A stretch of DNA of 13,555 nucleotides from positions 1-13,555 of the forward strand of contig QUFP01000063.1 in assembly GCA_003478935.1 (NCBI GenBank), in the 5' to 3' direction. Positions 2,425 through 13,277 of the stretch are shown piece by piece (the stretch's first letter is position 1; each line of letters opens with the position of its first letter). The notes under the pieces are model-generated. The model was given only the letters and a program-made list of their open reading frames with translations, had not been told where the DNA came from and searched no databases. The stretch is from Firmicutes bacterium AF25-13AC. GTDB taxonomy: Bacteria; Bacillota; Clostridia; Lachnospirales; Lachnospiraceae. The translations under genes and the position numbers were made by a program.

Positions 2425-2832
2425 TTGATACCCATAGGAAAGCGATACAATACGCCCCACCGAAGCCATGTAGTCAAGACACGCATGACCAAAGAAGAAT
2501 ATGCCGACTTCACGGAACGGCTAAAGAATTATGACATGAGCCAAGCCGAGTTTATCCGACAAGCCATTGCAAGGGCGACCATTCGCCCTATTGTTACCGT
2601 TTCCCCGGTCAATGATGAACTGCTATCCACTGTTGGAAAGTTGATAGCCGAATACGGAAAAATCGGCGGCAACCTTAATCAGATTGCCCGTGCCCTCAAC
2701 GAATACGGAACACCATACAATACGCTGTCCGTTGAAGTGCGAGCCGCCATTTCCAACCTTGCCGCCTTGAAGTTTGAAGTCTTGCGAAAGGTAGGTGACG
2801 CTGTTGGCAACATTCAAGCATATCAGCTCTAA
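2425..2832 (+). CDS. mobC: MobC-like relaxosome accessory protein
   Basis: A protein of about 132-135 aa that binds the transfer origin and helps the relaxase open and nick it. The N-terminal third has the ribbon-helix-helix look (VVKTRMTKEEYADFTERLKN, then MSQAEFIRQAI), and the centre has the MobC signature GKIGGNLNQIARALNEYG (about residues 79-96). It is followed by the relaxase with a 29-nt overlap. The start is doubtful. The ribosome site AAAGGAG (2418-2424) directly abuts the TTG at 2425, while the codon at a proper distance (2434) is ATA. It may use a rare start, or an ATG may have been lost by mutation. The body of the gene is intact. Confidence 0.85.
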   Translation: MIPIGKRYNTPHRSHVVKTRMTKEEYADFTERLKNYDMSQAEFIRQAIARATIRPIVTVSPVNDELLSTVGKLIAEYGKIGGNLNQIARALNEYGTPYNTLSVEVRAAISNLAALKFEVLRKVGDAVGNIQAYQL

Positions 2833-4420
2833 AAATGCGGACTACGGTGCAGCCGAGCAGTATCTAACCTTTGAGCATGACGAGTTTACCATGAAGCCCA
2901 CCCTTGACGAAACCGGGCGGCTCATACTCCGGGAGGATTATCGGATAGCCACGCTGAACTGCGGCGAGGAAGATTTTGCCGTTGCCTGTATGCGGGCAAA
3001 TCTCCGATACGGTAAAAACCAAAAACGGGAAGATGTGAAAAGCCACCACTATATCATTTCCTTTGACCCACGGGACGCAGCGGACAACGGCTTGACCGTA
3101 GACCGGGCGCAAGCATTGGGCGAGGAATTTTGTGCCGAGCATTTCCACGGACACCAAGCCATTGTCTGCACCCACCCGGACGGACACAACCACAGCGGCA
3201 ATATCCATGTTCATATCGTTATCAATTCTCTGCGTATTGAGGAAGTACCCTTGCTGCCCTACATGGACAGACCGGCAGATACCCGTGCCGGGTGCAAACA
3301 TCGCTGCACGGACGCTGCTATGGAATACTTCAAAGCCGAGGTCATGGAGATGTGCCACCGGGAAAATCTCTATCAAATCGACCTGCTCCATGGCAGTAAA
3401 AACCGCATTACCGAGCGTGAGTATTGGGCGCAGAAGAAAGGACAAGCCAAACTTGACAAGGAAAATGCCACCCTTGCAGCCGAGGGGCAGCCTGCAAAGC
3501 AGACCAAGTTTGAAACCGACAAGGCGAAGCTGCGGCAGACCATACGGAACACCATGAGCGAAGCTACTACCTTTGACGAGTTTTCCGCTTTACTTCTGCG
3601 GCAGGGTGTGATCGTCAAAGAGAGCCGAGGGCGGTTGTCCTACCTTACCCCGGACAGGACAAAGCCCATTACCGCCCGCAAGCTGGGAGATGATTTTGAC
3701 CGCGCTGCCGTTCTTGCCCTTTTGGAACAGAACGCCCACAGAGCCGCCGAAAAGACTGCACCAATACCCGAATACCATACCGCTGAAACAAACCGCACAG
3801 AGCGAGGAAAAACGCAGAAAATCGCCCCGACAGGCAACATTCAGAGAATGGTTGACCGTGCGGCGAAGCGAGCCGAGGGAAAAGGTATCGGCTATGACCG
3901 TTGGGTGGCTGTCCACAATCTCAAACAGATGGCGGCTACCGTTGCCACTATGGAGCAATACGGCTTTACCCCGGATGAACTGGACGCAGCCCTTGTGTCT
4001 GCCAATGCGGATTTACACAGCAGCACCGCCAAGCTGAAGCCCATTGAAACGGCTATCCGTGAGAAAAAGGACTTGCAGAAACAGGTGCTTGCCTATGCCA
4101 AGACAAGAGATGTGCGTGACGGATTGAAAAAGCAGAAAACCGATAAGGCACGCAAAGCCTACCGGGAAAAGCATGAAAGCGACTTTATCATAGCAGACGC
4201 AGCCGTAAGATATTTTCGGCAAAAAGGCATTACCAAGCTGCCCACCTATAAATCGTTGCAGGCTGAAATCGAGCAGCTTACCGCCGAGAAGAACGCCCTT
4301 TACAACGAGTACCGGGCAAATAAAGAGCTTGTCCGGGAGTTGCAGACCATGAAAAGCAATCTTTCCCAAATGCACCACGGCGAGCCGAGCCGACAGAAAA
4401 AGCATGAACAGGAGCGTTAA
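2804..4420 (+). CDS. relaxase (MOBP type, Relaxase/Mobilization nuclease domain)
   Basis: A 538-aa DNA strand transferase that nicks oriT and pilots the single strand during mobilization by a helper conjugative system. From the TTG start, HHYIISF lies at 81-87 and the metal-binding histidine motif HPDGHNHSGNIHVH at about 124-137, followed by IVINSLR. These are typical of the VirD2-like MOBP relaxases of clostridial mobilizable elements. The C-terminal half (from about 360) is charged and predicted helical (coiled-coil-like). I chose TTG 2804 because GAAAGGTAGG (2786-2795) is 8 nt upstream; an in-frame GTG at 2795 overlaps that site. The frame is open throughout, so the gene appears functional, unlike its DnaC and recombinase neighbours. 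Confidence 0.9.
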   Translation: MATFKHISSKNADYGAAEQYLTFEHDEFTMKPTLDETGRLILREDYRIATLNCGEEDFAVACMRANLRYGKNQKREDVKSHHYIISFDPRDAADNGLTVDRAQALGEEFCAEHFHGHQAIVCTHPDGHNHSGNIHVHIVINSLRIEEVPLLPYMDRPADTRAGCKHRCTDAAMEYFKAEVMEMCHRENLYQIDLLHGSKNRITEREYWAQKKGQAKLDKENATLAAEGQPAKQTKFETDKAKLRQTIRNTMSEATTFDEFSALLLRQGVIVKESRGRLSYLTPDRTKPITARKLGDDFDRAAVLALLEQNAHRAAEKTAPIPEYHTAETNRTERGKTQKIAPTGNIQRMVDRAAKRAEGKGIGYDRWVAVHNLKQMAATVATMEQYGFTPDELDAALVSANADLHSSTAKLKPIETAIREKKDLQKQVLAYAKTRDVRDGLKKQKTDKARKAYREKHESDFIIADAAVRYFRQKGITKLPTYKSLQAEIEQLTAEKNALYNEYRANKELVRELQTMKSNLSQMHHGEPSRQKKHEQER

Positions 4421-4727: not shown

Positions 4728-4818
4728 CTGCAAGCAGAGCTTCCGGGCGGTTATTATACTCTGCCCCCGCTACTACTCCAAACGCCGGAAAAAGGAGGAC
4801 AGGGACAATGGCAGATAA
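4606..4818 (+). CDS. small Cys-rich basic hypothetical protein
   Basis: A 70-aa, very basic protein with four cysteines in a compact pattern (CRGCTHSCKQSF, with one Cys before and one after) that could bind a metal. It starts MPRMSKKRR after an excellent ribosome site (AAAGGAG, 4592-4598, 7 nt before the ATG) and overlaps the replisome-organizer start by 11 nt, so it belongs to the same operon. Short proteins of this kind are found between relaxase and replication genes in related mobilizable elements; their role is unknown. A nucleic-acid-binding function would suit the charge, but nothing in the sequence proves it. Confidence 0.65.
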   Translation: MPRMSKKRRLEWPFFLRQVKVGNTTCDRITYNDLCRGCTHSCKQSFRAVIILCPRYYSKRRKKEDRDNGR

Positions 4819-5551
4819 CCGCAAGTATTACTACCTCAAGCTGAAAGAGAACTTTTTTGACAGCGACTCCATTGTGCTGCTGGAAGATATGAAAGACGGG
4901 ATTTTATATTCCAATATCCTCTTGAAGCTGTACTTAAAATCGCTGAAAAACGGTGGGAAGTTGCAGCTTGACGAGCATATCCCCTACACAGCGCAGATGA
5001 TAGCGACACTGACCCGCCACCAGATAGGGACGGTTGAGAGGGCTTTAGAGATTTTCCGGCAGTTGGGGCTTGTGGAGCAGCTTGACAGCGGGGCTTTTTA
5101 TATGACCGACATTGAGCTGATGATAGGACAATCCTCTACCGAAGCGGAACGAAACCGGGCGGCAAGGCTTGCAAACAAGGCTTTGCCACCACCCCGGACA
5201 AACGGCGGACATTTGTCCGACATTCGTCCACCAGAGATAGAGATAAAGAAAGAGATAGATATAGAGATAGAAAAAGAGAGAGAGTTAGAAACGGGACAAG
5301 CCCCCGCCCGCAGCTATGGCAGATACAACAATGTTTTTCTTTCCGATACGGAACTGGACGAGCTGAAAGCGGAACTGCCCGACAAATGGGAGTATTATAT
5401 TGACCGCTTATCTACTCATATAGCGTCCAAAGGAACGAAATACCGCAGTCATGCAGCCACGATATACAAGTGGGCGCAGGAGGACGAAGCCAAGAAACCG
5501 CCGAAAAAAGGCATACCCGATTACACCTTTAAGGAGGGCGAGAGTTTATGA
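4808..5551 (+). CDS. phage replisome organizer-like replication initiator
   Basis: A 247-aa protein whose N-terminal ~120 residues match the phage replisome organizer N-terminal domain (winged-helix; opening NRKYYYLKLKENFFDSDSIV, with GILYSNILLKLYLKSL at about 31-46). A charged linker follows (about 143-160, runs of Glu/Ile/Lys encoded by GATAGAGATA-like DNA at 5226-5290), then a C-terminal part with WEYYIDRLSTHIASKG resembling DnaD-type helicase-loader contacts. Such proteins open an origin and recruit the DnaC-like loader encoded next, which allows the excised element to replicate. AAAGGAGG (4791-4798) lies 9 nt before the ATG. The stop overlaps the dnaC-like start (ATGA). The gene is intact. 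Confidence 0.85.
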   Translation: MADNRKYYYLKLKENFFDSDSIVLLEDMKDGILYSNILLKLYLKSLKNGGKLQLDEHIPYTAQMIATLTRHQIGTVERALEIFRQLGLVEQLDSGAFYMTDIELMIGQSSTEAERNRAARLANKALPPPRTNGGHLSDIRPPEIEIKKEIDIEIEKERELETGQAPARSYGRYNNVFLSDTELDELKAELPDKWEYYIDRLSTHIASKGTKYRSHAATIYKWAQEDEAKKPPKKGIPDYTFKEGESL

Positions 5552-6398: not shown

Positions 6399-6587
6399 AT
6401 GACAGAAAACAAACAGAATAACAATGACCGCACCGACCGCCGCCCGGACTGTGTGACGGAGATCCGCATGGGCAACACCGTCCTTGTCGTTTCCGGCTTT
6501 TTCAAAAAAGATACCACCGACACCGCAGCCGATAAGATGATGAAAGTGCTGGAAGCGGAAGCTGCTACACAAAAAACGGCGATTTGA
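6399..6587 (+). CDS. tnpW: transposon-encoded protein TnpW
   Basis: A 62-aa acidic-to-neutral protein matching the TnpW family of clostridial transposons and mobilizable elements. The conserved core is TEIRMGNTVLVVSGFFKK (about 24-41), followed by a helix ending KMMKVLEAE. I chose ATG 6399 over the TTG at 6393 because AAAGGAG (6386-6392) stands 6 nt before it. It follows the broken dnaC-like gene by 12 nt and ends the mobilization/replication operon. The role of TnpW is not established. It appears intact. Confidence 0.85.
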   Translation: MTENKQNNNDRTDRRPDCVTEIRMGNTVLVVSGFFKKDTTDTAADKMMKVLEAEAATQKTAI

Positions 6588-6595
6588 CATGATAC

Positions 6596-6627
6596 TGAAA
6601 AGCGGTCACGCTTTTGGCGTGACCGCT
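6596..6627 (-). terminator. terminator of the hydrolase gene
   Basis: AGCGGTCACGC (6601-6611) and GCGTGACCGCT (6617-6627) form a perfect 11-bp stem with a 5-nt loop. On the minus strand the hairpin is followed by TTTT, and it lies 10 nt after the hydrolase stop. The stem may also slow plus-strand transcription leaving tnpW, but there is no T-tract on that side. Confidence 0.7.
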
Positions 6628-6637
6628 GGCAGAGAAA

Positions 6638-7258
6638 TTATAGGTTGAAAAATGCGGAGAGTGCTTTCCCCAAATCTTCGGGAGCGTCTATGTTTACTTC
6701 ATGTCCAGAATTTTTAATCACTAATAATTCGGCTTGCGGTAACTGCGATTGAAGCTGTAAAGAAGCCTGTTTATTTGCTGTATCTTTCTCCCCGCAGATA
6801 ACCATTACAGGGCTATTGATACACTTCAATTCTTTTTGGAAATCCAAGTTTATCATGGATTTTGACAGATTGATAAAATCCGTTTTACCAAGTCCCATGC
6901 TTTCAAATGTCCTTTTAGGCATAAACCGAAAGAGCATATTTTGAAATTGCAAGAGTTTTTTCGGCATTGTATATTGTGTCGCAACCAACGCCAAAGAGTT
7001 TATTTTATCTGGATTTTCAATCCCATATTGCAATGCGAGAATACCGCCTAAAGATAGCCCACAGATATTGACCGGTTCTGAAAATTGCTTACAGTATTCG
7101 GAGAAAGCAAGATATAAAACTTGATAGCAGACCTCTTTATCTTCAAACCAATCAAAAAGGTTCGGACATAAAATGTCCGCACTTTTCTCCATAGTGTTAA
7201 TCGTATTTTTCCAGCTTGATGATGTTTGCCCTAATCCATGAAGTAATATAGTTTTCAT
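6638..7258 (-). CDS. alpha/beta hydrolase (serine hydrolase)
   Basis: A 206-aa alpha/beta-hydrolase-fold enzyme, probably cytoplasmic as there is no signal peptide. The catalytic set is visible: oxyanion segment HGLGQTSSSW (7-16), nucleophile elbow GLSLGG with Ser69, acid Asp159 in CGEKDTANK, and His186 in NSGHE. It is short for the family because the cap region between Ser and Asp is small. A ribosome site (AGGAGAGA on the minus strand, 7260-7267) supports the start. The gene sits alone, opposite to its neighbours, between tnpW and the recombinase. That is the usual cargo slot in these elements, and its base composition is more AT-rich than the mobilization genes. The substrate cannot be predicted; esterase or peroxidase-like activity is possible. 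Confidence 0.85.
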   Translation of the reverse strand: MKTILLHGLGQTSSSWKNTINTMEKSADILCPNLFDWFEDKEVCYQVLYLAFSEYCKQFSEPVNICGLSLGGILALQYGIENPDKINSLALVATQYTMPKKLLQFQNMLFRFMPKRTFESMGLGKTDFINLSKSMINLDFQKELKCINSPVMVICGEKDTANKQASLQLQSQLPQAELLVIKNSGHEVNIDAPEDLGKALSAFFNL

Positions 7259-7285
7259 TTTCTCTCCTGCAATGTCTGATGTGTA

Positions 7286-7296
7286 TTTACGGTAAA
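7286..7296. promoter_or_regulatory. short palindrome in the hydrolase promoter region
   Basis: TTTACGGTAAA is an 11-bp odd palindrome 28 nt upstream of the hydrolase ATG. It directly follows a possible minus-strand -10 box (TATACT, rc of 7295-7300); no good -35 is visible. It may be an operator. Confidence 0.35.
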
Positions 7297-7363
7297 GTAT
7301 ATCACAGAGTTACGAACTTTTCTATCTTTTTTGCAGCGATAAGCCGCACAGAAAAATCGTCAT

Positions 7364-7379
7364 TTTACCGGGCGGTAAA
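7364..7379. promoter_or_regulatory. 16-bp palindrome between hydrolase and recombinase
   Basis: TTTACCG-GG-CGGTAAA is a perfect 7+7 dyad in the divergent region between the hydrolase and the recombinase. Its outer bases resemble the 7286-7296 palindrome, suggesting one regulator could bind both. No regulator gene lies nearby. Confidence 0.4.
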
Positions 7380-7393
7380 GAAGCAGAAGCCGC

Positions 7394-7423
7394 TATACAG
7401 ACAGCCGCCCCATGTGGTATAAT
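7394..7423 (+). promoter_or_regulatory. promoter of the serine recombinase gene
   Basis: A perfect TATAAT (7418-7423) with a weak -35 (TATACA, 7394-7399, 18-bp spacer) stands 45 nt before the recombinase ATG. The -10 box is enclosed by inverted arms GACAGCC-GCCCCA (7400-7412) and TGGGGC-T-GGCTGTC (7439-7452), a 13-bp pairing with one bulged base. This dyad may be an operator or a leader hairpin. Confidence 0.6.
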
Positions 7424-7468
7424 CGAAATACGGAATAGTGGGGCTGGCTGTCGGAAACGGAGGATTTT

Positions 7469-7564
7469 ATGTTAAGACAGACCACCCAGAAAATCACTGC
7501 CCTTTATCCAAGACTATCCCATGAGGACGAGCTGCAAGGCGAAAGTAATTCCATTTCCAACCAA
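7469..7564 (+). pseudogene. large serine recombinase, 5' fragment (codons 1-32)
   Basis: The first 32 codons of the outer element's TnpX-like integrase. The start is supported by GGAGG (7459-7463), 5 nt upstream. The fragment reads ALYPRLSHEDELQGESNSIS and contains the catalytic serine (Ser17 in RLSHEDE). After codon 32 (CAA) the reading runs into foreign DNA and stops at 7613-7615. The rest of the gene resumes at 11867 with Gln-Lys-Arg-Ile-Leu-Glu-Thr-Tyr. Since the nucleophile is separated from the rest of the catalytic domain, the enzyme must be inactive while the insert is present. Confidence 0.9.
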
Positions 7565-7592
7565 GACGGAATTTGTCAAGGAGGCTTTCTGC
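7562..7592 (+). repeat. left att core and inverted-repeat arm of the nested element
   Basis: CA at 7562-7563 is the duplicated core. The arm 7564-7592 matches the reverse complement of 11838-11866 at 22 of 29 positions with no gap, counted outward from each CA. Best-conserved blocks are TTTCTGC (7586-7592) and AAGG (7578-7581). This matches the imperfect inverted arms of a large serine recombinase attachment site. Confidence 0.85.
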
Positions 7593-7625
7593 AAAAGTTA
7601 CAAATTGTTCAATAATTATGTATTC

Positions 7626-7738
7626 TCACATCAATTTTTTCTCAACAAACTGTTGAATTACAAGTTGTATCGTATCTTCTACAAAGTTTGCATACTCGTC
7701 TCTTGATATAGTAATTTACCATTTCTATAGTTTTGCAT
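7626..7738 (-). pseudogene. small unrecognised gene with a frameshift
   Basis: On the minus strand an ATG at 7736-7738 opens a frame reading QNYRNGKLLYQETSMQT that hits TAG after 19 codons. Shifting by one base near 7681-7686 continues a convincing protein sequence (VEDTIQLVIQQFVEKKLM) to a TGA at 7626-7628. A ribosome-like GAGGCGG lies upstream (about 7743-7751). It follows the DUF3795 gene by 30 nt, in the same operon direction. I do not recognise the family; it may be a short accessory gene of the parent element, now decayed. Beyond it, 7565-7625 holds only the left arm. Confidence 0.4.
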
Positions 7739-7768
7739 AACTCACCGCCTCTGTTTCTGAAAAACAAA

Positions 7769-8137
7769 TCACTTTCCGGTCTTAATCATTTCAATGATTT
7801 CTTCCTCGGTCTGGCATTTGTCATAGTCGCCAACAAGCTGACTTTCATAGTGATACACAATGCCTTTTTTCTTGTTTCTAAGGAGACATTTTTCAAGTTC
7901 CTCTACACCATATCTTCTTGCAAACTCTGCAAAAGCACGAATACGGGGCTTATCGAGCATACATCCGGTGCAAGGAAATTCAGAACATTCCCAACAGCCG
8001 TTCAGCCCTTTTTCTTTACAACAGTTATAGTTTTTGCACCAGCCGTGGCTTTCACCGCCTCCGTCTTGGCAACCTACACAGCCTTTATTTTCGGAACAAA
8101 CGCAACACGCAAGACCACAAAATGCAATAGCTTTCAT
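7769..8137 (-). CDS. DUF3795 Cys-rich protein
   Basis: A 122-aa protein of the DUF3795 family. The opening KAIAFCGLACCVCSENKGC is characteristic, and about a dozen cysteines in the first 65 residues (for example WCKNYNCCKEKG, CWECSEFPCTGC) probably bind zinc or an iron-sulfur cluster. The C-terminal half is helical and charged. I chose the ATG at 8137, not the upstream ATG at 8155, because GGGAGG (minus strand) then sits about 10 nt upstream as ribosome site. The start is only 2 nt after the APH-kinase stop, so the two are co-translated. The family's function is unknown. Confidence 0.85.
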   Translation of the reverse strand: MKAIAFCGLACCVCSENKGCVGCQDGGGESHGWCKNYNCCKEKGLNGCWECSEFPCTGCMLDKPRIRAFAEFARRYGVEELEKCLLRNKKKGIVYHYESQLVGDYDKCQTEEEIIEMIKTGK

Positions 8138-8139
8138 TA

Positions 8140-9819
8140 TTATGCCGCCTCCCATTCTGCTGTGAATTGTCTGATTGTTTGCTGACGGTTGGCACGATCA
8201 TCACTTACTGCTCTCGTTGCGATCTCAAAGAGCTTGTCGCTGAGCTGCCACTTTTCCCGTGTGCGGTTATACTCTCCAAAGAGCGCAAAAGCGGTAGCAC
8301 CAAGAGTATAGACGTTCGTAATTTCATCAATATCGGCTCCGAGCTGATGTTCTTCCGGGGATTGGAAGCGAGAGCTGCCCCACATATGTCCCATATCGTT
8401 GACACACGGTTGTTTGCGGAAAAGGTCAATATCGCAGATTGTAGTCTTTCCGTTCACAAAATCATACATAATGCTGCCGTCATAAAAATCTATGGCTACA
8501 TAATTGCGCGAGACAACACATTCCAAGAAGCTCAATATGTCGCTGAACACAGCGAGCCTGTCATTGATGGGAAGCTGAATAAAGCGACGATATGCCGCGG
8601 GGTACATTCTGCCCATACAATCGCCATCAGCCCACTTGAATACCATAGCGAACCCGTCGCCAATTTCCTTGGCTTCAATAAGCTCAATCAGATTCTCGTG
8701 CTTCAGATCGCTGTAAATCGGGAGAGTAGCTTTCAATCTGGAGATAGCATCTGCAGGATCGCCGCCGTACTGCTCGGTAGGAGCACCGGCGAACTTTACA
8801 AAATAACGCTGACCGTCTTTTTCAGTACCAAAGCAGATGTTTCCGGAATCCTGGTCATCGTAAACCTTGAACACCGTTCCATACTCTTTCATAAAGCTGA
8901 AATCAAAAGTACTTTTCAGCTTGAAAGGAATCCCGTCGATGTACTGCAGATAATACCCTTTGAAATACCATGTCGGCACAGGATTACGCATATTATCGTA
9001 CCAAGACAGAACCTCCTTGGCTTGGTTCAGCATGGTGTTCACTTCGTCCTGTCCGAACGGAATCGCCCAATATACAGATGAGAGAGTATTGCTTGAAATG
9101 TAAAGAGCAAGCAATCTCCAAAATTCCATAGGTACGTTATCATCAAAGTATCCGTTTACCATACCGGAAGCAAAGAGAGGAGCTTTCTGAGCGCACCAAA
9201 CAATGCGGTTAAATTCTTCCCACGGATCACCGTAATCGTTACGGTTAAAGTCGATAACGTGGAGCTGACCGCCTCTGTCGATCATCATATTGCCGATGTG
9301 GTAATCACCGTGCTGATATACCTGCGGTCTGTTTTTCAGCAAATGACGGTTCTCGTTTATGTAGTCGATAAATGCCTGTCCGTTCTCATACTTGATGGGG
9401 CACTCAACGTACTTTTTGATCTTATAATCCATTTTACGGTTAAAACGGATTTCCCAATCCTCCTGCGTTGCAGGAGCAGGAATGGAGTGGATATTGCGAA
9501 GAATACGTCCTGCTTCCAAGCCATATACATATTGCTCGGTATCAGAATAGCCCGACATGACCTGTTCTGCATCTTCGCCGTCAATCCAACTTTGGATGGA
9601 ATAAACGCCATCCTCACAAGTGCCAAATTCAATGGGCTGGCACATAGGCACTCCAAAAGAAGCGACCTGTTTCATCATATTAAACTCAGACTGCTTTGTG
9701 TCGTGCTGTGCAATATCGGAAACACGCAAAAGATACCGTGTGCCGTTTTCGTCGGTAACACAGTATTTTTTATCACTCGACCAGCCTTTGTTTATTGGTT
9801 CTTTCGTTACAAAATTCAT
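8140..9819 (-). CDS. APH-like phosphotransferase fused to a protein-kinase-like domain
   Basis: A 559-aa cytoplasmic protein with two kinase-fold domains. Residues 1-~285 are an aminoglycoside/choline-kinase-type phosphotransferase, with catalytic H170-G-D172-Y-H174 and N177, and metal-binding D190 in HVIDF. Residues ~310-559 resemble a Ser/Thr kinase: possible ATP-binding Lys342 (YFVKFAG), catalytic-loop-like AIDFYDGSIMYD (D444, with Ser449 where the usual Asn would be), metal-site-like CDID (463-465), a P+1-like GSSRFQSPEE (481-490) and the helix-F-like VYTLGATAFALF. It lies 17 nt after the GNAT gene and 2 nt before DUF3795, in one operon. Substrates are unknown: drug or metabolite phosphorylation is plausible for the first domain, a regulatory or protein-directed role for the second. 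It appears intact. Confidence 0.85.
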   Translation of the reverse strand: MNFVTKEPINKGWSSDKKYCVTDENGTRYLLRVSDIAQHDTKQSEFNMMKQVASFGVPMCQPIEFGTCEDGVYSIQSWIDGEDAEQVMSGYSDTEQYVYGLEAGRILRNIHSIPAPATQEDWEIRFNRKMDYKIKKYVECPIKYENGQAFIDYINENRHLLKNRPQVYQHGDYHIGNMMIDRGGQLHVIDFNRNDYGDPWEEFNRIVWCAQKAPLFASGMVNGYFDDNVPMEFWRLLALYISSNTLSSVYWAIPFGQDEVNTMLNQAKEVLSWYDNMRNPVPTWYFKGYYLQYIDGIPFKLKSTFDFSFMKEYGTVFKVYDDQDSGNICFGTEKDGQRYFVKFAGAPTEQYGGDPADAISRLKATLPIYSDLKHENLIELIEAKEIGDGFAMVFKWADGDCMGRMYPAAYRRFIQLPINDRLAVFSDILSFLECVVSRNYVAIDFYDGSIMYDFVNGKTTICDIDLFRKQPCVNDMGHMWGSSRFQSPEEHQLGADIDEITNVYTLGATAFALFGEYNRTREKWQLSDKLFEIATRAVSDDRANRQQTIRQFTAEWEAA

Positions 9820-9836
9820 ATCTTTTCTCCGTAGCT

Positions 9837-10448
9837 CTATCTGCCAAACACCTTGACATCACCGAGCAGTTTAAGGTTTCCATTATCCACGAGAATTGCG
9901 CCAGCTCGCGCAGCGGTTGCGTACACGGTTTTACCACGTTCAGCGCTGATTTCACGAACCGTAGTATTGATAGCGAGCTGTCGTTCTTTTCGTTCTGATC
10001 CTGCAGGATGCAGGACATATTTCTGATTTGGGTAATCAAATTCTTCAATAAGCTCGTCTGCAACAAAACCATATTTTTCATACAATGCTCTTGGGGCGGT
10101 TCCTTTTTCATCGTCAGCACGGAAAGTAGATACCGAGATTTCTTTTGTTCTGTCTAAATTGGTAAGAACTTCATCCATGAGAATGGAAGCAACACCACGG
10201 CGACGGTATTCGGGCGAAACAGCGAGATAGCAGATCATGTTGTGTCCTCGTAAGAACAGCATAACACCGGCAATCTCGTTTTCGTCCTTTATACAGATAG
10301 CCTGTCTCTTGTCCATGAACTTGAGAACGGTGGCTCGATGCTCGTTTAGCTTCTCTTGCGTTTCCAGACCTGGGAAATTCCAGCGCACCTGTGTAACAAG
10401 GCTCATCCAATTTTCAATATCTTCCGGTACTCCATAAAAGAGCTGCAC
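9837..10448 (-). CDS. GNAT family N-acetyltransferase with a C-terminal extension
   Basis: A 203-aa acetyl-CoA-dependent acetyltransferase. Residues 1-~148 form the GNAT fold: motif A at 74-92 with the acetyl-CoA loop RRRGVAS (82-88), and motif B ALYEKYGF (121-128). Residues ~152-203 are an extra tail (ending LKLLGDVKVFGR) that I do not recognise and that ordinary GNATs of this size lack. The start is GTG, supported by GGAGG on the minus strand 9 nt upstream. It is the first gene of the cargo operon, with a TATAAT box (10524-10529) about 75 nt upstream. The substrate is unknown; acetylation of a small amine or drug is possible. Confidence 0.85.
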   Translation of the reverse strand: MQLFYGVPEDIENWMSLVTQVRWNFPGLETQEKLNEHRATVLKFMDKRQAICIKDENEIAGVMLFLRGHNMICYLAVSPEYRRRGVASILMDEVLTNLDRTKEISVSTFRADDEKGTAPRALYEKYGFVADELIEEFDYPNQKYVLHPAGSERKERQLAINTTVREISAERGKTVYATAARAGAILVDNGNLKLLGDVKVFGR

Positions 10449-10523
10449 AGTATTTCGCCTCCGTTCGTAATCAATTGGTTATCAAAGCAATCGCCTTACT
10501 CATAGATACAAAAATCCATAATA

Positions 10524-10529
10524 ATTATA
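10524..10529 (-). promoter_or_regulatory. -10 box of the GNAT/APH-kinase/DUF3795 operon
   Basis: A perfect TATAAT on the minus strand lies between the relaxase terminator and the GNAT start. The -35 position is poor (TAGAAT at 17 bp), so an activator may be needed. The rest of 10449-10617 is AT-rich with no gene. Confidence 0.55.
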
Positions 10530-10572
10530 GCACAAAAATATGAAAAATTCTACCGGCTTCACGAATAAAACA

Positions 10573-10609
10573 GAAAAATCGGGAGTGCATCGTTCAAAAT
10601 GCACTCCCG
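10573..10609 (-). terminator. terminator of the MobA/MobL relaxase remnant
   Basis: A perfect 11-bp stem (10580-10590 with 10599-10609) is followed on the minus strand by ATTTTTC. It lies 9 nt after the relaxase stop and separates it from the cargo operon. Confidence 0.85.
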
Positions 10610-10617
10610 CTGAAATT

Positions 10618-11831
10618 TTATCGCTCCCAACTGTCTCGATTTTTCTTCTTGTTCTGCTTTTGCTGTGACTGCTGTTGCTGTTTCCGGCGAATGAACTCCC
10701 GAACAGAACGTGTATCTGATTCTTCATGGAGCAGATTTGCCACATCACGCTTGCTGTCGTGCATCAGCATCGGATCGTATTTCTCGCCGTAGGCAGCTTT
10801 CACACGGTCAACAGCAGAGCGTTCCTTTTCCTCACGAACGGCAAGCCGTGCATCCATCAGCTCAGCGGCATCCATACCAGCGCCTTGTTCTTTCAGCTCG
10901 GCATACTGCTTCAAAGCTTCATCAAGCTCGGCAGAATATTTTTCTTCCTGCTCGGACAGCTTCTGCAGCGCACCCTCCAATGTGGCGATTTCTTTCTTCA
11001 CCTCGGAAATACCCGCATCGTCGGCGCAGTCCAAAGAACGAAGCAGAAAGTCTTTTTCGGTTTTCAGCTCCTCGATTTCCTCAGTCAGCTCGGTAATGCG
11101 GTGGGTAAGGTCATGCAGCTTGGGTATCAGATAGAACGGCGTTTCCTTTTTCTCCGCAAGCAGATTCCTCCGTTCCTTGGATTTCTCCTTGATTTGTTGC
11201 ACCAAACTCGCATAGCGTTCAAGCTCCGGCTTGACTGCATCAACACGCTTACCCATGCGGTTCTTACCTACACCAATATAACGAAGCTGATAGCTGAAAA
11301 TCAGTATACTGCTGCATAGCTTTTCCAATGCTTCCGCTATGGCAGGAACCGTATTCTTTACCGCTTGCATCAGCTTCTTGACCGTTGCTTTCAGCTCACG
11401 GAGCAGTGCATTGTCTGCCTTGATCTGACGGTTGATTTCACAGCGGTCAGAGATAACACCCTTTTTCTCCAACGCACGGGCAACCACACCCTCGTGAATA
11501 GTGGGCTGCTCGGTCAAGCCTCTGTCTGCATGGCTGCGGTGGTCGATGCGCTCGTTGTGTCCGTATCTCTATAAATAACAGTTGGTCACGTCTGCCCACG
11601 CCTTGCGCCACTCCACAAGCTGTTCTTCGCTGTTCCAACGCTCGGCAATGGGATTCTGTCTGCCGAACTTGGTGCTTTTTGGGTGTTTCTTGGCTCGTTC
11701 ATAGCCGTGCTTCTCAGCCTCGGATGGAGGCATATACACTTTCTTTCGACCGACCTTGTACGGATATTGCTTTTCCCATCCGTCTGCCAGTTGCCCTGTT
11801 CATCAAGCGGGCGCACCGTCAGCATATGTAT
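10618..11831 (-). pseudogene. MobA/MobL relaxase, 5'-truncated and frameshifted
   Basis: This is the C-terminal part of a MOBQ-type relaxase. Homology begins abruptly at IHMLTVRPLDEQGNW (11831 downward), the end of the histidine-triad motif, so the catalytic N-terminus is gone. Within 11757-11785 the frame shifts, and homology continues (YKVGRKKVYMPPSEAEKHGY, later ERWNSEEQLVEWRKAWAD). At 11569-11571 a TAG stands where Glu is expected. RYGHNERIDHRSHADRGL follows in the same frame, which then runs open for over 300 codons to 10618. The long C-terminal region is rich in Glu, Lys and Leu (coiled-coil-like) and ends in Gln/Lys runs. With three lesions it cannot act as a relaxase. Confidence 0.9.
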
Positions 11832-11837
11832 TAGGTG

Positions 11838-11868
11838 GCAGAAACCACCCTTTACATATTACATCTCA
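11838..11868 (-). repeat. right att arm and core of the nested element
   Basis: Inverted partner of 7562-7592. CA core at 11867-11868 and arm 11838-11866, with matching blocks GCAGAAA (11838-11844) and CCTT (11849-11852). The arm touches the truncated relaxase within a few bases (11831-11838), which marks an old deletion joint. Confidence 0.85.
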
Positions 11869-13277
11869 GAAGCGTATCCTTGAAACCTACGCAAAGCAGA
11901 ACGGCTTTTCCAATCTGCGCTGGTACACGGACGATGGCTATTCTGGTGCGAACTTCCAAAGACCAGGCTTTCAATCCATGCTGGCGGACATTGAAGCCGG
12001 GAAAGTGGCTACCGTTATCGTAAAGGATATGTCACGGTTAGGGCGAAACTACCTGCAGGTGGGAATGTATACCGAGATGATTTTCCCACAAAAAGGCGTC
12101 CGCTTTATCGCCATCAACGATGGAGTAGACAGCGCACAGGGCGACAATGATTTTGCCCATCTGCGGAACATTTTCAACGAATGGCTGGTGAGAGATACGA
12201 GTAAGAAAATCAAAGCTGTAAAACGGTCAAAAGGCATGAGCGGCAAGCCTGTTACGAGCAAACCCGTGTACGGCTACCTCATGGACGAGGACGAAAACTT
12301 CATCATTGACGAGGAAGCCGCACCCGTGGTCAAGCAGATATACCGTCTGTGCCTTGCCGGGAACGGTCCGACCAAGATAGCCCGTATGCTGACCGAGCAG
12401 GAAATCCCAACGCCGGGAACGCTGGAATACCGCAGGACGGGCAGCACACGCCGCTATCACCCCGGCTATGAGTGCAAATGGGCGACAAATACCGTGGTGC
12501 ATATCCTTGAAAACCGGGAGTACATGGGCTGTTTGGTGAACTTCAAGACGGAGAAACCGTCCTACAAGACCAAGCACAGCATAGAAAATCCCATTGAGAA
12601 ACAGGCAATTTTCGAGAACCACCATGAGCCTATCATCGACACCCAGACATGGGAGCGTGTGCAGGAATTACGCAAACAGCGCAAGCGTCCGAACCGCTAT
12701 GATGAAGTGGGCTTGTTCTCTGGTATGCTCTTTTGTGCGGACTGCGGCAGCGTCATGTATCAGCAGCGTTACCAGACCGATAAGCGGAAACAGGACTGCT
12801 ATATCTGCGGGAAAGCATGAAGCCCGGTTTATGAAGCTGCTGATCGAGCAGAACGAGGACGGCGGCAAACGCCGGAACGCCGCCAAGAAAAAGGAAATGG
12901 AAGCTGCCGAAAAGCGTATCGGTGAACTTTCCGCTATTTTCAAGCGGCTGTATGAGGACAGCGTAAGCGGTCGCATTTCTGACGAGCGTTTCACGGAGTT
13001 TTCGGCAGACTATGAAGCCGAACAGCAGGAATTGAAAGAGCGTGTTGCCAGAATACAGGCGGAGCTTTCCAAAGCACAGGAAGCTACCGTAAACGCAGAA
13101 AAGTTTATGAACATTGTCCGCAAGCACATGAACTTTGAAGAACTGACCCACACCCTCTTGCGTGAGTTTGTAGAGAAAATCGTTGTGCATGAGTGCAGCT
13201 ACGATGAAAACGGCACACGCAGACAGGATATTGAGATTTACTATTCTTTCGTCGGCAAGGTGGACTTGCCCGAATGA
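11867..13277 (+). pseudogene. large serine recombinase, 3' fragment with an internal deletion
   Basis: This continues the 5' fragment from the Gln codon at 11867. It holds the rest of the resolvase domain (VKDMSRLGRNYLQVGMYTEM; the Arg pair around SRLGR is catalytic in this family), the recombinase domain (KPVYGYLMDEDE through TNTVVHILENREYMGC), and the zinc ribbon FCADCG...DCYICG. At 12801-12812 a deletion fuses the ribbon to KHEARFMKLL out of frame, so the first frame ends at TGA 12818-12820. The remainder (12813-13277) is a coiled coil and a DUF4368-type tail ending SFVGKVDLPE. From memory of the family about 35-40 codons are missing. With the 4.3-kb insert and this deletion the integrase is dead. 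Confidence 0.9.

What the first reader, a model, noticed from the sequence alone, without database searches (positions are those of the whole stretch)
7562..11868. A complete second element is nested inside the outer element's integrase gene, with exact att signature
Seen directly: the recombinase reading stops at codon 32 (7564) and resumes at 11867. CA is repeated at both junctions. 29-nt arms measured outward from the two CA cores match inverted at 22 of 29 positions with no gap. Removing 7564-11868 restores AAC-CAG-AAG in frame. Known: large serine recombinases exchange at a 2-bp core flanked by imperfect inverted arms. Inference: a different serine recombinase used a site within this integrase gene, silencing it. 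Integrase genes as insertion targets would let one element immobilise another and ride within it.
Basis: partly seen in the sequence, partly recalled or inferred. Interest (0 to 1): 0.88.

Follow-up and report, generated by a model that had tools for sequence, protein, structure and literature searches.

The report
Element remnant inside an integrase gene
A worn-out copy of a bacterial mobile element sits inside the integrase gene of another mobile element, and relatives of it were found at the same codon of many other integrase genes.

Summary
The insertion is real. Window 7564-11866, with CA on both sides, interrupts a large serine recombinase (LSR) gene at codon Q32. The 22/29 arms are the insert's own two ends; the host flanks match at 7/29. 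The insert is not complete: it lacks recombinase and TnpV and is a four-times-deleted copy of a 17.7-kb integrative and mobilizable element (IME) that is intact in another genome, in another LSR gene. Of 59 loci found by the family's right-end motif alone, 37 lie in an LSR gene at the same codon (S-I-x-N-Q|K), in either orientation; 22 do not. Among the 37 the core dinucleotide (CA or TG) predicts orientation in 36. Of 13 inner recombinases 12 form one clade; the interrupted ones are scattered. IMEs nested in genes of other elements are known; in my searches I met no description of the integrase gene as main target. Excision, circular forms and effects on the outer element are not shown; one search for the circular joint found nothing.

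The parts
7469..7563 (+). N-terminal piece of the outer LSR gene (M1 to the first two bases of codon Q32)
   Evidence: reading; same residues in P0002; abuts the C-terminal piece in L127, L128, L129
7562..7563 (.). left CA core
   Evidence: CA once in the empty sites
7564..11866 (.). insert without its cores, 4303 bp: deletion-bearing copy of the IME seen whole in L123
7564..7592 (.). left end of the insert, arm matching the right end inverted at 22 of 29
   Evidence: same left end in G001 and L123 beside other LSR genes
7703..7715 (.). internal deletion junction 1 relative to L123 (13-bp overlap)
7769..8155 (-). DUF3795 protein
   Evidence: PF12675, 1.9e-06
8140..9819 (-). APH-family phosphotransferase domain plus kinase-like C-terminal part; not a recognised resistance gene by the curated cut-offs
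   Evidence: PF01636 1.5e-35, Pkinase below its cut-off; NCBIfam APH_3p 38 bits against cut-off 205
9837..10448 (-). GNAT protein, fused by a deletion at 9944 to the end of a peptidase S51 gene
10618..11517 (-). C-terminal fragment of the MobA/MobL relaxase gene
   Evidence: no MobL profile hit for this fragment; 99% DNA identity to the MobL gene of L123, PF03389 9.4e-91 there
11586..11825 (-). further MobL fragment, separated by a stop, with deletion junctions at 11784-11791 and 11823-11826
11823..11866 (.). right end of the insert with the family's right-end motif (inner arm 11838-11866)
11867..11868 (.). right CA core
11867..12817 (+). C-terminal piece of the outer LSR gene from Q32 on (most of the Resolvase domain, Recombinase, start of the zinc ribbon)
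   Evidence: (Resolvase profile positions 16-139 of 145)
12806..12813 (.). second lesion of the outer LSR gene: deletion of about 104 bp relative to L127, L128 and L129, 8-bp overlap, followed by a stop at 12818
12810..13277 (+). tail of the outer LSR gene with DUF4368, in another frame
   Evidence: PF14287 1.4e-23
2795..4420 (+). relaxase of the outer element
   Evidence: PF03432 1.5e-13
4808..5551 (+). replication-organiser-like protein of the outer element
   Evidence: TIGR01714 6.7e-37

Best explanation
The insert is a decayed copy (a cis-mobilizable remnant) of an IME of the TnpX/TnpV type. Relatives carry TnpV close to the right end, a DUF4368 large serine recombinase and a MobA/MobL relaxase. 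That recombinase exchanges strands at a 2-bp core, CA or in other members TG. The core lies in a site with AT eight and nine bases out, supplied by the conserved codons S-I-x-N-Q-K-x-(I/L) in the catalytic domain of other serine integrases. Because the core is not palindromic, its sequence fixes the orientation in the target gene. The event cuts the outer integrase gene behind the codons of the catalytic serine, so the outer element should be unable to excise with its own enzyme until the inner one leaves. Shown: the anatomy, empty sites, repeated insertion at the same codon of different integrase genes, the core/orientation rule, one clade of inner recombinases. Inferred: which enzyme acts, loss of outer integrase function, its return on excision, any benefit to the inner element.
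For: Empty sites with CA once; uninterrupted protein P0002. Near-identical element at the same codon of two other outer LSR genes: G001 left end and L123 both ends, 17,732 bp. 37 of 59 right ends found without flank letters lie in an LSR gene at the same codon (35 distinct flanks). 23 of 30 left-end loci likewise. Core CA with C-side flank 20 of 20, core TG with N-side flank 16 of 17. AT at core +8/+9 in LSR sites 15 of 20 (CA) and 15 of 17 (TG), in other sites 8 of 10 and 5 of 10. TnpV 80-207 bp from the right end in 39 of 59. LSR, TnpV and MobL domains in L123. 12 of 13 inner recombinases one clade, 100/100.
Against: 22 of 59 right ends are not in an LSR gene. One TG end has the opposite orientation (L083), two ends have neither core (L070, L081). 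One of the 13 inner recombinases, L055_inner, is of another clade, and the tree carries long-branch warnings. No circular joint in viral contigs. The left-end pattern is loose: 34 matches against 11 of its reversed control (my sums). By a two-mismatch end pattern only 3 of 145 relatives of G001 hold an end. The window copy has no recombinase of its own, so how and when it moved last is unknown.
Confidence: 0.87

Rival explanations
1. Low-specificity TnpX-like integration: the enzyme needs little more than a CA/TG core and AT in the arms, and integrase genes are hit because their conserved codons happen to make a good site and such genes are plentiful. No selection for attacking integrases.
For: 22 of 59 ends lie elsewhere and share mainly the core and the AT. 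DUF4368 LSRs are described as a multi-targeting clade (PMC10083194, passages), and Tn4451 is described as of low specificity (PMC5704250 section 5). About 126 uninterrupted sites of the form SNSI-x-NQK-x-(NT) stand in 46 of 145 genomes, against 4 for the reversed control (my sums).
Against: 37 of 59 at one codon of one gene family, over very diverged targets. This rival is compatible with the same molecular mechanism and differs only in whether the targeting evolved.
Confidence: 0.45
2. A DDE-type transposon with terminal inverted repeats and a 2-bp target duplication.
For: Inverted ends (22 of 29) and a 2-bp direct repeat.
Against: No transposase among the insert ORFs searched. The intact relative L123 has an LSR and TnpV. 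The ends are only partly alike (23 of 29 in L123, 17 of 29 in L125). Orientation follows the core, as expected of LSRs and not of DDE enzymes (recalled).
Confidence: 0.02
3. Assembly artefact or chimera.
For: The window's own assembly is not held. The window shows several deletions at overlaps of 1-13 bp.
Against: The left junction recurs in G001 and L123 and the right junction type in L123, L028, L046 and L052, at the same base beside other LSR genes.
Confidence: 0.03

Closest known systems
Tn4451/Tn4453 and Tn6104 (TnpX-TnpV-Mob elements of Clostridia)
   Same: Large serine recombinase, TnpV, MobA/MobL relaxase, 2-bp direct repeat; Tn6104 is nested in Tn6103 and excises (PMC3158075 section 6)
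   Different: The insertion places of Tn6104-Tn6106 are given as ORFs 1743 and 1776 without a function in the part I read, so a precedent there is not excluded; Tn4451 is described as of low specificity (PMC5704250). Here one codon of LSR genes is the main target. No sequence of Tn4451 or Tn6104 was compared
IMEs of streptococci integrated in traG, maff2 or snf2 of ICEs, and IME_Rho_tet in MAFF2
   Same: Serine-recombinase IMEs that disrupt conserved genes of other mobile elements (12 of 16 in PMC5357655, passages; PMC12904643 section 19)
   Different: Target is an LSR gene in 37 of 59; the genes hit at the other 22 were not identified
CIMEs in snf2 of S. suis ICEs
   Same: Elements that lost integrase and relaxase but keep their ends; TnpV named in that family (PMC9815147, passages)
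   Different: Other target gene; the window copy has also lost TnpV
DUF4368 multi-targeting LSR clade (TndX-like)
   Same: Inner recombinase has Resolvase, Recombinase, zinc ribbon and DUF4368; tndX of enterococcal plasmids is 38.5% identical
   Different: PMC10083194 (passages) does not, in what I read, name integrase genes as target
res-site-hunter transposons (Tn5053 family)
   Same: Mobile DNA that homes to the recombination system of other elements (PMC7765201, start of abstract in listing)
   Different: They use another transposition system aimed at res sites (recalled); here the coding sequence of the integrase is the site

Membership tests
TnpX/TnpV-type IME, intact relative L123 | large serine recombinase with DUF4368 | tested here: met
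   PF00239, PF07508, PF13408, PF14287
TnpX/TnpV-type IME, intact relative L123 | TnpV near the end | tested here: met
   PF14198 2.9e-48; 144 bp from the right end in L052, the same element; 39 of 59 loci
TnpX/TnpV-type IME, intact relative L123 | MobA/MobL relaxase | tested here: met
   PF03389 9.4e-91
TnpX/TnpV-type IME, intact relative L123 | 2-bp direct repeat at the junctions | tested here: met
   CA on both sides
TnpX/TnpV-type IME, intact relative L123 | excision as a circle and mobilisation | not testable with these tools
   no circular joint in viral contigs; wet test needed
TnpX/TnpV-type IME, the window insert itself | own recombinase, TnpV and intact relaxase | tested here: not met
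CIME (remnant with both ends, without integrase and relaxase) | both ends kept, integrase and working relaxase lost | tested here: met
IMEs of maff2, snf2 or traG | integration in maff2, snf2 or traG | tested here: not met
   in the window the target is an LSR gene; in the family 37 of 59, the other 22 target genes not identified
IMEs of maff2, snf2 or traG | their terminal repeats (21 bp or 11 bp) | not tested
   motifs not compared

The most novel reading that the evidence does not exclude
An evolved 'integrase hunter': an IME family whose recombinase has specialised on the conserved catalytic-domain codons of serine integrases, so that it can disable and ride in very different serine-integrase elements. 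It spares its own integrase gene, whose site carries TA instead of AT at core +8/+9 (16 of 16 own genes; 0 of 21 C-side flanks at right ends; but 1 of 6 C-side flanks at left ends, L111, has the same Q-K-K-Y). How common that variant is among integrases generally was not measured, and L069 lies in a gene whose first 32 residues resemble the family's own recombinase.
Probability: 0.28. Interest if true: 0.85.

Novelty: new variant of a known kind. Interest (0 to 1): 0.72.

Why it matters
It turns one nested insertion into a testable rule of conflict between mobile elements: one family may switch off other elements' integrases at a site they cannot easily change, because it encodes conserved residues. 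It offers dozens of natural junctions, with a natural core difference (CA/TG) that goes with orientation, for an LSR clade that I found no experiments on. It also means that some 'truncated' integrases in Clostridia genomes may be reversible insertions.

Tried and rejected
Complete-element reading: rejected by comparison with L123. Host arms as the inverted repeat: rejected, 7 of 29. DDE transposon and assembly artefact: see rivals. Circular joint in viral contigs: none. Self-sparing of the own integrase gene: suggestive only; the background test was not obtained. Loose codon patterns were too unspecific to count LSR genes and are not used. Own assembly: not held. Plasmid and phage searches with the L123 recombinase listed tndX (38.5%) as the only named gene among the 25 plasmid rows shown; the best plasmid rows (51.8%) are called 'recombinase family protein'; an unannotated faecal phage-collection record (MT838923) is 87% identical over half of it and was not followed. 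Literature: over open-licence PMC papers; no listing or passage that I read describes the integrase gene as the preferred target, but most subscription papers are not held and some insertion places (Tn6104-Tn6106) were not resolved.

Full report
WHAT IS THERE. The outer LSR gene starts at 7469 and is left at Q32 (7562-7564); it is resumed at 11867. CA stands at both junctions. The insert's two ends, read inward, match at 22 of 29 positions; the host flanks read outward match at 7 of 29, so the arms belong to the insert. In the window 11 of 63,383,450 position pairs reach 22 or more.

EMPTY SITES. In L127 (G074), L128 (G111) and L129 (G036) the window's flanks 7341-7563 and 11866/11867-12813 lie next to each other with CA once, at 83-89% identity, and most of window 2.2-6.6 kb (the outer element) is present in the same order. 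These three stretches were chosen from sites listed. P0002 is an uninterrupted protein of the window's type in a cluster of 5521 sequences; the search behind it listed 120 of 7837 matches and had scored only the 7992 candidates with most shared words. The outer gene has a second lesion: about 104 bp present in all three relatives are missing at 12806-12813 (8-bp overlap), and a stop follows.

THE INSERT IS A RELIC. Its genes are a DUF3795 protein, an APH-like/kinase-like protein, a GNAT-peptidase fusion and MobL fragments; I found no recombinase. In L123 (G161) the same element is whole: 17,732 bp between the CA cores, with MobL, an actin-like protein, a 694-aa LSR and TnpV. The window copy matches it at 99% over 7703-11791 in two blocks and differs by four deletions (L123 1688 to 4068, 6309 to 7607, 9454 to 9532, 9574 to 19225) with overlaps of 13, 1, 8 and 4 bp. 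G001 holds the same element, left end included, in a third outer LSR gene; its right end was not seen in the 37 kb that I read, nor by a two-mismatch end pattern over that genome. L125 (G180) holds a 1.5-kb member with both ends in yet another LSR gene, so short derivatives are not unique to the window. The cargo families resemble antibiotic-modifying enzymes but lie well below the curated cut-offs where such exist; function unknown.

THE FAMILY. A right-end motif without any flank letters (GGCAGAAACCACCCNNTACATA) was found in 59 stretches of genome contigs, mostly Clostridia by record title (one genome for each of 84,980 species, so the exact motif is scattered, not common; a two-mismatch pattern for both ends hit 3 of 145 relatives of G001). 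Reading the flank in frame, 37 of 59 lie in an LSR gene exactly at the codons N-Q|K. The C-terminal side is seen in 21: L025 L028 L030 L031 L036 L041 L046 L047 L049 L052 L054 L055 L060 L064 L066 L072 L073 L075 L080 L082 L083. The N-terminal side is seen in 16: L026 L034 L037 L038 L040 L043 L044 L051 L056 L057 L058 L061 L063 L069 L074 L078. I made this assignment by eye on the printed peptides; BLAST against four reference pieces found an LSR at the junction in most of them but gave no hit for L038, L056 and L061, only a weak one for L054, and for L031, L041, L052 and L072 a best hit that does not begin at the junction. The other 22 are 10 with core CA, 10 with core TG and 2 with neither. Core CA goes with C-side flanks in 20 of 20; core TG with N-side flanks in 16 of 17 (exception L083). 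Left ends (AGACGNNATTTGTCAAGG, one mismatch) were sought in the genomes of 50 of the 59 loci (44 genomes): 34 places in 21 genomes, against 11 for the reversed control (my sums); 30 places were held as loci, and 23 of these abut an LSR gene at the same codon, 17 from the N side with CA and 6 from the C side with TG. Left and right ends lie on one contig for G041 C10 (13.46 kb apart), L123 and L125; for G165 and G156 this is inferred from equal contig lengths. Left and right counts therefore overlap and are not independent.

SITE AND ENZYME. Distinct LSR flanks number 18 of 20 and 17 of 17. AT at core +8/+9 occurs in 15 of 20 (CA, LSR), 15 of 17 (TG, LSR; L083 among them), 8 of 10 (CA, other) and 5 of 10 (TG, other). 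The consensus of the element's right ends shows AT at the same distance for TG ends and in most CA ends. Half-sites of this kind around a 2-bp core fit LSR sites (recalled). TnpV lies 80-207 bp from the right end in 39 of 59 (5 loci hold too little interior to tell). A recombinase at least 62% identical to that of L123 is seen in 17 of 59; most loci show only part of the interior, and three more (L026, L031, L055) show other LSRs. In the tree (26 rows; inner rows kept by a length and motif filter that dropped L037) 12 of 13 inner recombinases are one clade (100/100), L055_inner falls elsewhere, and the outer ones are scattered, three on end branches above 1; the tool warns of long branches. 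L123 (core CA) groups with L044, L023 and L057 (core TG), which suggests that the core switched within the clade.

MECHANISM. Most likely the IME's LSR integrates by exchange at the 2-bp core in the conserved codons S-I-x-N-Q-K of other integrases. The split parts the piece with the catalytic serine (position recalled) from the rest of the Resolvase domain (profile positions 16-139 of 145 are in the C-terminal piece). Loss of outer integrase function and its return on excision are inferred. About 126 sites of the form SNSI-x-NQK-x-(NT) stand uninterrupted in 46 of 145 genomes, against 4 matches of the reversed control (my sums), so targets are plentiful there.

OWN GENE. In 16 of 16 own recombinase genes with the site in the loci searched, +8/+9 read TA (Q-K-K-Y), while 21 of 21 C-side flanks at right ends have T at +9 and 16 of 21 have AT; among the 6 C-side left ends one (L111) has Q-K-K-Y. 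L069 lies in an N-terminus that resembles the family's own recombinase (81% over 32 residues), so sparing may not be complete.

LITERATURE. Seen: PMC3158075 section 6 and passages; PMC5704250 section 5 part 1 and passages; PMC12904643 section 19 and passages; PMC10083194, PMC3485107, PMC11911784, PMC12424338, PMC5357655 and PMC9815147 passages; PMC7765201 start of abstract in a listing. Nested IMEs that disrupt genes of host elements are established (12 of 16 streptococcal serine-integrase IMEs in PMC5357655). I found none described as targeting the integrase gene.

VERDICT. Real, and more general than the finding says; the window's own copy is a relic. New variant of a known kind.

Noticed in passing
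window 6566-7341: About 0.75 kb with an alpha/beta-hydrolase gene (6638-7258, minus strand) is absent from L127, L128, L129 and L051; its borders align to the same ~30 bp of L127, as if flanked by an imperfect repeat. Possibly a small gained cassette.
   Followed up: partly
window 1974, 7703-7715, 9944, 11784-11791, 11823-11826, 12806-12813: At least six deletions relative to relatives, in both the outer element and the insert, at overlaps of 1-13 bp: unusually many for 13.5 kb.
   Followed up: partly
L125 793-2305: 1.5-kb member with both family ends in an LSR gene, without recombinase or TnpV, with one longer reading frame of up to 264 codons that was not searched.
   Followed up: no
L039, right end at 7430-7451: MobL-like sequence (72%) only 149 bp from the right end, as in the window copy: perhaps another deletion derivative.
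   Followed up: no
L101 around 1501: A left-end-like motif preceded by TTAGCTCTCA, which resembles a right end; possible tandem junction.
   Followed up: no
L123 4715-8111: APH-like, peptidase S51 and GNAT plus AadA-C-like domains side by side in the intact relative: perhaps a small-molecule-modifying cluster of unknown substrate.
   Followed up: no
L055 interior: TnpV-bearing member whose nearby recombinase belongs to another LSR clade: recombinase exchange or a further nested element.
   Followed up: no
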